DNA from: Thermus sp. CCB_US3_UF1
GTDB lineage: Bacteria; Deinococcota; Deinococci; Deinococcales; Thermaceae
Length of the DNA: 64,000 nucleotides
Assembly: GCF_000236585.1 (NCBI RefSeq)
Contig: NC_017278.1
Span: forward strand, 2,170,001 to 2,234,000
Reading direction: 5' to 3'
In this document: in pieces, positions 23,790 through 26,254 of the stretch
How the letters are laid out: each line of letters begins with the position of its first letter
Position numbering within the stretch: position 1 is the stretch's first letter
Notes under the pieces: model-generated
Database searches by the model: none
What the model saw: the letters and a program-made list of their open reading frames with translations, nothing else
Told to the model about the DNA's origin: nothing
Made by a program: the position numbers and the translations under genes

Positions 23790-24710
23790 CTACGAAGCCC
23801 CTGCGGGGCGCAAGAGGGGCTCCGCCCCCCGGGCCGCAGCCCGGCCCCCCACCACCTTGAGGCCCAGGGGCCGCACCTCCGCCCGGTACAGGGCCGCCTC
23901 GGGGAGGAGTTCCCCGTCGGCGTGGGCCGGCACGGGGTGGGGAAAGGCCACCTTCACCTCCCGCCCGGCGTAGGCCACCACCTGGGGGTGGGAGAGGTGC
24001 CGGCCCAGGAGGAGGCGGGGCAGGATGAGGACCACCCCGGGCCGGGTGAAGGCGCGGGCCAGGACCACGGAGAGGAGGCCGTCCCGGGGATCGGCCATGG
24101 GGGCGATGGGGATGCCCCCCCCGTAGGCGGGCCCGTTCATGGCCGCCAGGAGGAGGAGGGGCCCCCGGTGGACCTCCTCCCCGTCCACCCACACCCGCCC
24201 CTCGGGGAGGCGCAGGTCCTTGAGGACGCCGAAGAGGGCGTAAAGGTAGCGGGGCATGCCCCGCAGGAAAGGGGGGGCGGCGAAGGCCTTCTTGGCCACC
24301 AGGGCATCAAAGCCAACGCCCAAGGAGGCCCCGAAGGGCTCCCCGTTCACCAGGCCCAGGTCAATGGCCTCCTCCGGGGCGAGGAGGGCCCGTTCCAGGG
24401 CCTCCGGCCAGGGAAGCCCCCTAAGGCCCAGCATGCGGGCGAAATCGTTGCCGCTGCCGATGGGCACCACCCCCAGGACCTTGTCCGTGCCCGCCAGGCC
24501 CTTTAGGACCTCGTGCACCGTGCCGTCCCCGCCCACGGCCACCACCCGGGCCCCCTCGGGGGCGCTTTGGGCCAGCTCCGTGGCGTGGCCTGGGCCCTCG
24601 GTGAGGAAGGCCCGGGCCCCCTTCTTCCGCGCCGCCTGGAGGATGGCCCCCGAGAGCCGGCCCACCTTGCCGCGGCCCGCCGCCGGGTTCACGATCACCC
24701 ACCTTTCCAC
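23790..24710 (-). CDS. Diacylglycerol kinase-family lipid kinase (YegS/DagK type)
   Basis: 306 residues with a GTG start. The N-terminal catalytic domain has IVNPAAGRGK, then VVAVGGDGTVHEVLKGL with the ATP-binding GGDGT, and IPLGSGND-like PIGSGNDFAR. The C-terminal beta-sandwich has GASLGVGFDALVAKKA, AMNGPAYGGGIPIAP and HADGELLP. Soluble members of this family phosphorylate diacylglycerol or related lipids at the membrane. The lipid substrate cannot be told from sequence. The start is 6 bases after TAGAAT, part of a shared divergent promoter. Confidence 0.92.
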   Translation of the reverse strand: MERWVIVNPAAGRGKVGRLSGAILQAARKKGARAFLTEGPGHATELAQSAPEGARVVAVGGDGTVHEVLKGLAGTDKVLGVVPIGSGNDFARMLGLRGLPWPEALERALLAPEEAIDLGLVNGEPFGASLGVGFDALVAKKAFAAPPFLRGMPRYLYALFGVLKDLRLPEGRVWVDGEEVHRGPLLLLAAMNGPAYGGGIPIAPMADPRDGLLSVVLARAFTRPGVVLILPRLLLGRHLSHPQVVAYAGREVKVAFPHPVPAHADGELLPEAALYRAEVRPLGLKVVGGRAAARGAEPLLRPAGAS

Positions 24711-24715
24711 CCCCG

Positions 24716-24722
24716 TATTCTA
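24716..24722. promoter_or_regulatory. Shared bidirectional -10 element TATTCTA
   Basis: Plus strand: TATTCT (24716-24721), 6 bases before the ATG at 24728. Minus strand: TAGAAT (24722-24717), 6 bases before the GTG at 24710. One 7-bp block provides the -10 hexamer of two divergent leaderless genes whose start codons are only 17 bases apart. Confidence 0.7.
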
Positions 24723-24727
24723 GGGGC

Positions 24728-25366
24728 ATGGGCCTCCTGGGCCACTTCCTCAAGGGGCCCCACCCCAAGACCACCCTCCTCCTCACCCGCGCCGGACCGG
24801 TGGAAAACCCCGGGCACCGCCTCTACAGCCACCCGGGCCTACCCCTGGCCGAGGAGGGCCGGCAACGCCTTAGGGCCCTGGCGGGCCTCCTCAGGCGCTA
24901 CCCGGTGGCGGCGGTCTACGCCCCGGACAGCCTGGCCGAGGCCGAGGGGGGAAGGCTTCTGGCCGGGGCCCTGGGGGTCCCCTTGCGGCTACGCCCGGAG
25001 CTGCGGGAAAGGTCCTGGGGGCTTTGGGAGGGGCTTTCCTTCGCCGAGGTGGAGGCCCGGTTTCCCCAGGAGGTGGCGGCCTGGGTGGCGGACGAGGCGG
25101 GCTTTGCCCCTCCGGGGGGGGAGAGCGTGCGGGAGGCCTGGGCAAGGGGAAAGGAGGCGGTGCAGTCCCTCCTTAAGGCCCACCTGGGGCAGGCGGTCCT
25201 GGTGGTGGGGAACTGCACCCTGAACCGGGCCGCCCTCAGCCTGGCCCTGCCCCTACCCCCCGAGGAGGGCCTAAGGCTGGAACAGGACTACGCCCGGCTC
25301 ACGGTGCTGGACTTCTACGGGGGAGAAGGGGTGGTGAAGGCCCTGAACCTGGACCCTTGTCCCTAG
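24728..25366 (+). CDS. Histidine-phosphatase-fold protein lacking catalytic histidines
   Basis: 212 residues aligned by eye over the whole phosphoglycerate-mutase/histidine-phosphatase fold. The phosphohistidine motif RHG is RAG (Arg21-Ala22-Gly23). The second His (usually in SHGG or GHG) is Asn162 in VVGNCTLNRAAL. The SSDLxRA segment is APDSLAEAEG, losing its Arg, while ELRERSWGLWEGLS and PPGGES are well kept. The gene is not decayed: it is full length, in frame and has a good promoter. It should be a non-catalytic binding or regulatory relative. Partner and ligand unknown; it is divergently paired with a lipid kinase. Confidence 0.82.
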   Translation: MGLLGHFLKGPHPKTTLLLTRAGPVENPGHRLYSHPGLPLAEEGRQRLRALAGLLRRYPVAAVYAPDSLAEAEGGRLLAGALGVPLRLRPELRERSWGLWEGLSFAEVEARFPQEVAAWVADEAGFAPPGGESVREAWARGKEAVQSLLKAHLGQAVLVVGNCTLNRAALSLALPLPPEEGLRLEQDYARLTVLDFYGGEGVVKALNLDPCP

Positions 25367-25399: not shown

Positions 25400-26254
25400 A
25401 TGATCCGGCCCGTGGCCCGCAAGGACCTTCCGGGGCTTCTCAAGCTCCTCCGCCACATGGACGAGAGCCCCGCCCGCGGGGTCCTGGCCCCGGAGGCCCG
25501 GGACCTGGAAGGCCTGGCCGAGGAGCTGGAGGACGGGCTGGTCCTCCTGCGCGAGGGGGAGGTGGTGGGGTACGTGGGCCTCTACCCCTTCTGGGACGGG
25601 GCCGCCCTGGAAGGCCCCCTGGCCTACCAGGCGGAGGACCTGCCCCACCTCCTTCTGGCGGCGGAGGCCCGGGGGAAGGAGCTCTCGGTGGAAAGGCTTT
25701 ACGCCTTCCCCCGGGAGGAGAACCGCACCCTGCGCCGGGCCCTCGAGGCCGCCGACTTTGGCCTCCTCCACCTCACCTACTTCTTCGTCAAGAACCCGGA
25801 GGGCCTGGACTACCCGCCCCCCGAGGGGGTGGTGGTCCGGAAGGGCTTCCCCGGAGCCCAGGTCTACCGGGAGGTCTACCGGGAAAGCGAGGAGGGCTGG
25901 GCCCTCCGCCTCAAGTGGACGGACGAGGAACTGCTGGAACACTTCCAGGACCCCCAGGTCCACCTCCTGGTGGCCTACCGGGGGGAGGTCCCCGTGGGCA
26001 TGGCCGAGGTGGAGCTGGAAGGGGGGGAGGCCAGCGTGGCCTACATCGGGGTCATCCCCGAGGCCCGGGGCAAGGGCATTGGCCGGGCCCTCCTGGCCGA
26101 GGCCGCCCGCCTGGCCAAGGCCAAGGGGGCCCACCTCCTCCGGGTGCGGGCCCACGACCACGAGACCGGGGCCCTGGAACTCTACCGCGCCCTGGGCTTC
26201 AGCCTGGAGGAGGCGGTGGCCACCTACGCCAAGGAGCTCACGGCCAGGCGGTAG
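25400..26254 (+). CDS. GNAT acetyltransferase, probably two tandem domains
   Basis: 284 residues. The C-terminal half (about 145-284) is a clear GNAT domain with the acetyl-CoA loop in VIPEARGKGIGRALLAEAARL and the closing LYRALGFSLEEAVATYAKEL. The N-terminal half has similar secondary structure (VGYVGLYPFWDGAALEG, then VERLYAFPREENRTLRRALE) but a weak loop, so it is probably a degenerate copy. Substrate unknown. The 3' end overlaps the convergent HDAC-like gene by 31 bp. Confidence 0.88.
   Translation: MIRPVARKDLPGLLKLLRHMDESPARGVLAPEARDLEGLAEELEDGLVLLREGEVVGYVGLYPFWDGAALEGPLAYQAEDLPHLLLAAEARGKELSVERLYAFPREENRTLRRALEAADFGLLHLTYFFVKNPEGLDYPPPEGVVVRKGFPGAQVYREVYRESEEGWALRLKWTDEELLEHFQDPQVHLLVAYRGEVPVGMAEVELEGGEASVAYIGVIPEARGKGIGRALLAEAARLAKAKGAHLLRVRAHDHETGALELYRALGFSLEEAVATYAKELTARR

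What the first reader, a model, noticed from the sequence alone, without database searches (positions are those of the whole stretch)
24710..24730. One 7-bp block TATTCTA serves two divergent leaderless genes
TATTCT (plus) and TAGAAT (minus) are the two readings of the same heptamer, each exactly 6 bases from a start codon (ATG 24728; GTG 24710). Start codons are 17 bases apart, so no space exists for separate core promoters. Polymerase must choose a direction and both genes compete. Bidirectional use of symmetric -10 elements is known in other bacteria; here both RNAs would also be leaderless and the product pair (lipid kinase and a phosphatase-fold pseudoenzyme) would be tied together.
Basis: partly seen in the sequence, partly recalled or inferred. 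Interest (0 to 1): 0.76.

Follow-up and report, generated by a model that had tools for sequence, protein, structure and literature searches.

The report
Shared promoter core, two leaderless genes
In Thermus, one seven-base DNA block very probably acts as the promoter core for two genes that run in opposite directions and whose messages start directly at the start codon; the block has been kept across two bacterial families, so it is a well-conserved case of a known kind of two-way promoter in an unusually compact form.

Summary
It is more than chance. TANNNT six or seven bases before the start is this genome's leaderless signature (46 and 32 of 444 genes, against 1-5 at most other offsets), and the shared block is the only TANNNT within 200 bp upstream of either start; neither start has a Shine-Dalgarno or -35 box. 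In 24 Thermus orthologues the heptamer shows 1 change in 168 cells. In three other genera of two families TA-NNN-TA stays while the middle varies; in a fourth genus the same pair has two separate -10 elements, one beside each start. This is best explained as a bidirectional promoter (18 bp, the commonest known geometry) whose two mRNAs are both leaderless. Each half is already described; the doubly leaderless, deeply conserved combination was not found in the papers searched. Competition and co-regulation are not supported by sequence, and published E. coli work predicts little competition at basal activity. No transcription-start data were available. Conservation is stronger on the kinase side, so use in the phosphatase direction is inferred.

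The parts
24716..24722 (.). Shared heptamer TATTCTA (TA-NNN-TA): -10 element TATTCT on plus (24716-24721) and TAGAAT on minus (24722-24717)
   Evidence: position fits the genome's leaderless -10 signature; 1 change in 168 cells in 24 Thermus; TA..TA kept in three other genera
24723..24727 (+). Rest of plus spacer (GGGGC) before ATG; fits the leaderless consensus G-rich -5 to -3 and C at -1
   Evidence: variable in orthologues (25 changes in 120 cells)
24711..24715 (-). Rest of minus spacer (CGGGG) before GTG; conserved
   Evidence: 3 changes in 120 cells
23790..24710 (-). YegS/Rv2252/BmrU-type lipid (diacylglycerol) kinase gene, GTG start, GGDGT motif intact, probably leaderless
24728..25366 (+). 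Histidine-phosphatase-superfamily pseudoenzyme gene (TRAG and GNC in place of RHG and THG), ATG start, probably leaderless
25400..26254 (+). GNAT acetyltransferase gene downstream of the phosphatase-fold gene; its homologue lies directly divergent from the kinase in Meiothermus and Calidithermus

Best explanation
The heptamer is a bidirectional, -10-only promoter core. RNA polymerase with the housekeeping sigma factor can bind in either orientation. With start sites at the first base of each start codon (24728 and 24710, 18 bp apart), the key -11A and -7T of one direction pair with -7T and -11A of the other. Transcripts begin at the start codons, so both mRNAs are leaderless. Shown here: sequence, geometry, genome-wide signature, absence of other signals, conservation, and the separated state in a related genus. 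Inferred: actual start sites, use in both directions, and relative strengths. The kinase direction has the better -10 core (TAGAAT) and the phosphatase direction the better spacer and +1 base, so neither is clearly dominant by sequence.
For: (1) Leaderless signature peaks at gaps 6-7 and matches the published, reporter-tested Deinococcus-Thermus -10 motif (PMC12340547). (2) The shared block is the only TANNNT within 200 bp upstream of either start; no SD; best -35 match is 3 of 6 in each direction. (3) 18 bp is the commonest bidirectional spacing and makes -7 and -11 coincide (PMC12825309, PMC10268837). (4) Heptamer 1/168 changed against 25/120 in the plus spacer, Fisher 1e-9. (5) Outside Thermus, TATTCTA, TATTTTA or TATTGTA in seven further loci of genera g5, g12, g14 and a Thermaceae MAG: TA ends kept although the kinase-side spacer varies in length and sequence. 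(6) In g13 the same gene pair has starts separated by 34-36 bp, with TANNNT six bases before the kinase start and TGN-GATAAT six or seven before the phosphatase start: each gene has its own start-adjacent -10 when they are separate. (7) Matrix score over -12 to +1: plus 12.4 (53rd percentile of 53 leaderless sites), minus 8.2 (17th).
Against: No transcription-start data. Conservation in Thermus is asymmetric: the kinase-side spacer is nearly as conserved as the heptamer (3/120), the phosphatase-side spacer is not, so kinase-promoter function alone could explain most of the Thermus conservation. Only T24716 is specific to the plus -10, and it is also the first base of the conserved kinase-side spacer. 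Plus carries T at -9, seen in 4% of gap-6 leaderless sites. Gene starts are predicted.
Confidence: 0.75

Rival explanations
1. The block is a one-way leaderless promoter for the lipid kinase (TAGAAT-ACGGGG-GTG); the plus reading is an accident of -10 symmetry, and the phosphatase-fold gene is transcribed from inside the kinase gene or only weakly.
For: Kinase side has the consensus-like -10 core and a conserved spacer; a TANNNT followed by A is bidirectional for free, and 25/110 leaderless hexamers are followed by A.
Against: No SD and no other TANNNT within 200 bp upstream of the phosphatase start; spacer length on that side stays 6-7 in all shared genomes aligned while the kinase-side spacer ranges to 9; g13 has a separate start-adjacent -10 for that gene.
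Confidence: 0.17
2. The block is conserved as an operator for an unknown regulator, or as a symmetric DNA site, rather than as a -10 element.
For: Quasi-symmetric, strongly conserved.
Against: Exact leaderless spacing on both sides, middle base free to vary while TA ends stay, and replacement by two ordinary -10 elements in g13 all fit -10 logic; no extended inverted repeat is conserved (flanks differ between species).
Confidence: 0.04
3. One gene start is mis-predicted and that mRNA has a short leader, so the coincidence of spacings is partly an annotation effect.
For: Start codons are predictions; in-frame GTG codons lie downstream of the kinase start.
Against: N-terminal residues VERWVIVNP and MGLLxHFLxGP are conserved from the proposed starts in nearly all Thermus copies, with synonymous changes inside them.
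Confidence: 0.04

Closest known systems
Bidirectional promoters with a shared symmetric -10 element (Warman, Grainger and co-workers; PMC12825309, PMC10268837)
   Same: One -10 element read both ways; start sites 18 bp apart; -7T and -11A coincide reciprocally; found widely in prokaryotes; about a quarter of E. coli cases lie between divergent genes.
   Different: The cases read in those papers are not described as leaderless ('leaderless' does not occur in PMC12825309). Here both predicted starts are the start codons. Activity here is not measured, and -18T shows no enrichment in Thermus leaderless genes (21% against 17%).
Leaderless genes with a start-adjacent -10 motif in Deinococcus-Thermus (PMC12340547; Zheng 2011, PMC3160421)
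   Same: TANNNT six or seven bases before the start codon, no SD, -35 not needed; about 30-40% of genes in the phylum by those surveys.
   Different: Those reports treat one gene at a time; PMC12340547 contains neither 'divergent' nor 'bidirectional'.
Divergent leaderless pair prpD / Rv1129c in Mycobacterium tuberculosis (PMC3898074)
   Same: Two divergently oriented genes with mapped leaderless starts; closely juxtaposed divergent promoters noted as common.
   Different: The text read does not say that a -10 element is shared.

Membership tests
Bidirectional promoter (shared symmetric -10) | One -10 sequence readable on both strands | tested here: met
   TANNNTA
Bidirectional promoter (shared symmetric -10) | Start sites about 18 (also 10 or 23) bp apart with -7 and -11 reciprocal | tested here: inconclusive
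   Met if transcription starts at both start codons (18 bp); starts not mapped
Bidirectional promoter (shared symmetric -10) | Transcription detected in both directions | not testable with these tools
   No Thermus transcription-start data found
Leaderless gene of Deinococcus-Thermus type (both genes) | TANNNT 6-7 bases before the start codon | tested here: met
Leaderless gene of Deinococcus-Thermus type (both genes) | No SD upstream of the start | tested here: met
Leaderless gene of Deinococcus-Thermus type (both genes) | RNA 5' end at the start codon | not testable with these tools
   Needs 5'-end mapping
Active histidine phosphatase (branch 1) | RHG motif and second catalytic histidine | tested here: not met
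   TRAG and GNC instead; fold family met (PF00300)
YegS/BmrU lipid kinase | DAGK catalytic domain with GGDGT motif | tested here: met
   TIGR00147 score 115.7, just below its cut-off of 118.65

The most novel reading that the evidence does not exclude
The shared block is kept by selection as a two-way, doubly leaderless start point that sets the ratio of the two proteins: promoter core, both start sites and both start codons are packed into 23 bp, so each start codon lies inside the other gene's promoter region and changes in one gene's start affect the other gene's transcription.
Probability: 0.25. Interest if true: 0.68.

Novelty: new variant of a known kind. Interest (0 to 1): 0.47.

Why it matters
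If both starts are confirmed, it joins two recently described features, bidirectional -10 elements and start-adjacent leaderless promoters, in a minimal design of 23 bp. The gene pair exists in a fused state (Thermus, g5, g12, g14) and a split state (g13), which gives a natural comparison for testing whether sharing a -10 causes interference or coupling. In a leaderless-rich compact genome such overlaps may be common: in a 464 kb sample 5 of 12 divergent pairs with both sides leaderless have overlapping -10 hexamers, two of these five lying in stretches picked for the site.

Tried and rejected
- Exact pattern TATTCTA-N6-ATG in the own genome found nothing because the spacing after the heptamer is five; replaced by the symmetric pattern.
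- Taking all genus-wide hits of the symmetric pattern as bidirectional promoters: rejected after checking ORFs; most are one-sided, and several arise where the TAG stop of an upstream gene overlaps the next gene's -10.
- A -18T rule as in E. coli: no T enrichment at -18 in gap-6 leaderless genes, although the sigma factor keeps the TIRIPVHM stretch.
- A -35 box or extended -10 in either direction: none.
Several stretches were shifted to include known hits of the symmetric pattern, so overlap counts are biased upward.
- Literature search for doubly leaderless bidirectional promoters in this phylum: none found in the library searched; subscription papers are mostly not covered.

Full report
OBSERVATION. 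The block and spacings are exactly as described: 24708-CAC CCCCG TATTCTA GGGGC ATG-24730. TATTCT (24716-24721) is followed by six bases and ATG 24728; on the other strand TAGAAT (24722-24717) is followed by six bases and GTG 24710. There are 17 bases between the start codons, 18 bp between their first bases.

GENES. Minus: 306 aa, DAGK_cat plus YegS_C, a YegS/Rv2252/BmrU-type lipid kinase with GGDGT intact. Plus: 212 aa, histidine phosphatase fold (PF00300, 2e-41). Aligned with the best PDB match it has LTRAG where that phosphatase has LTRHG and VVGNC where it has IVTHG; TRAG and (G/A)NC are kept in the Thermus copies read and in the other genera. So it is a conserved pseudoenzyme candidate. 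In nearly all Thermus copies the N termini VERWVIVNP and MGLLxHFLxGP start at the proposed codons, with synonymous changes inside them.

IS IT MORE THAN CHANCE? In 464 kb of this genome (window plus twenty 20 kb stretches) a codon-usage gene finder called 461 genes. TANNNT lies at gap 6 in 46 and gap 7 in 32 of 444 starts, against 1-5 at most other offsets. That is the leaderless -10 motif known for this phylum, found 6-7 bp upstream of ORFs and shown by reporter mutation to act as a -10 element in D. radiodurans, with transcript level rising after it in T. thermophilus (PMC12340547). At this locus it is the only TANNNT within 200 bp upstream of either start; there is no SD and no -35 box better than 3 of 6. 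The symmetric pattern at the right spacing is enriched in Thermus (158 against 4 in 27 genomes; N6/N6 70 against 10; N4/N4 8 against 19), but most hits are one-sided, so the count measures leaderless promoters in general. Genuine two-sided pairs: this one; an L-serine dehydratase-like gene with a secreted protein; and at N6/N6 a mannose-6-phosphate-isomerase-like gene with a 290 aa protein. In other genomes: a patatin-like with an indole-glycerol-phosphate-synthase-like gene, a transporter-like pair, a dephospho-CoA-kinase-like with a tRNA-nucleotidyltransferase-like gene, and a glutaminyl-tRNA-synthetase-like with a peptidase-like gene (names judged from sequence, not scanned). In the sample, 12 of 56 divergent pairs carry the leaderless motif on both sides and 5 of the 12 have overlapping hexamers (two of the five lie in stretches that were picked because they contain the site).

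CONSERVATION. In 24 Thermus genomes with the pair (22 distinct sequences) the heptamer has 1 change in 168 cells (TATTTTA in one), the kinase-side spacer 3 in 120 and the phosphatase-side spacer 25 in 120, three species having one extra base there. The heptamer is thus far more conserved than the plus spacer (Fisher 1e-9) but not distinguishable from the minus spacer (p 0.31). Related sequences count several times in such a test, so the p-value is only a guide. Conservation inside Thermus therefore fits the kinase promoter best and does not by itself prove plus-strand use. Other genera help. g5 and g12 have TATTCTA, g14 and a Thermaceae MAG have TATTTTA or TATTGTA; TA at both ends is always kept, the phosphatase-side gap is 6 or 7, and the kinase-side gap varies from 6 to 9. 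In g13 the same two genes have start codons separated by 34-36 bp, with two distinct elements: TAAAAT, TACAAT or TAGAAT six bases before the kinase start, and TGN-GATAAT six or seven before the phosphatase start. When the genes are apart, each has its own start-adjacent -10. A kinase tree places the shared state in lineages on both sides of g13 and of the Meiothermus/Calidithermus group, which lacks the phosphatase gene beside the kinase (deep forks weakly supported). The simplest reading is an old shared element, split once in g13 and lost with the gene in Meiothermus and Calidithermus. This is inference.

A NATURAL BREAK. In Thermus sp. 2.9 an element of about 8 kb with a Zot-family (PF05707) ATPase, a 428 aa protein without Pfam match and two transposases lies inside the heptamer: left end CCCCGTATTCT|TATAAACC, right end GGTTAGGT|CTAGGGCCATGGGC. 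A second genome (G021) has the same left junction. It looks like an inovirus-type prophage. After insertion neither gene keeps a clean TANNNT at gap 6.

MECHANISM. The geometry matches published bidirectional promoters: 18 bp is the most frequent spacing, and at 18 bp -7T and -11A of the two directions pair with each other (PMC12825309; PMC10268837). Here -7T and -11A are T24721 and A24717 for plus, and the complements of A24717 and T24721 for minus. A score matrix from 53 gap-6 leaderless sites puts plus at the 53rd and minus at the 17th percentile: plus has the better spacer, -1C and +1A, minus the better -10 core (plus carries T at -9, seen in 4%). Both are within the range of the predicted leaderless sites, and no strong direction can be read from sequence.

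WHAT IS KNOWN AND WHAT IS NEW. Bidirectional -10 elements and start-adjacent leaderless promoters are both published. Closely spaced divergent promoters, and one divergent pair with both mRNAs leaderless, are noted for M. tuberculosis (PMC3898074). I found no paper in the library searched that describes one -10 serving two leaderless genes. I file this as a new variant of a known kind, with the caveat that no transcript has been mapped.

Noticed in passing
L161:58-8100 (Thermus sp. 2.9, G024) and L162 left end (G021): An inovirus-like prophage (Zot-family ATPase, TSP3-repeat secreted protein, Mutator and IS110 transposases nearby) is inserted inside the shared heptamer, separating the kinase and phosphatase genes.
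   Followed up: partly
G000:C2:1459255-1459277 (L130:14255): Second pair in this genome with the same 18-bp shared TA-NNN-TA: L-serine-dehydratase-like gene and a 638 aa secreted protein; present in other Thermus (e.g. L157).
   Followed up: partly
G000:C2:1820151-1820175 (L139:2152): Pair with a shared TAGCATA block and six-base spacers: mannose-6-phosphate-isomerase-like gene and a 290 aa protein; near-identical sites listed in most Thermus genomes.
   Followed up: partly
L192:1500 (G036) and L194:600 (G043): Other doubly leaderless shared-heptamer pairs in family f4: dephospho-CoA-kinase-like with tRNA-nucleotidyltransferase-like, and glutaminyl-tRNA-synthetase-like with an M20-peptidase-like gene.
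   Followed up: no
G000:C2:1499572, 2094426, 926007: Co-directional genes in which the upstream gene's TAG stop overlaps the next gene's start-adjacent -10 element; sites at 1499572 and 2094426 recur across Thermus.
   Followed up: partly
24728-25366 and orthologues in family f4: A histidine-phosphatase-fold protein without catalytic histidines is conserved with the TRAGPVEN motif across two families; its function is unknown.
   Followed up: partly
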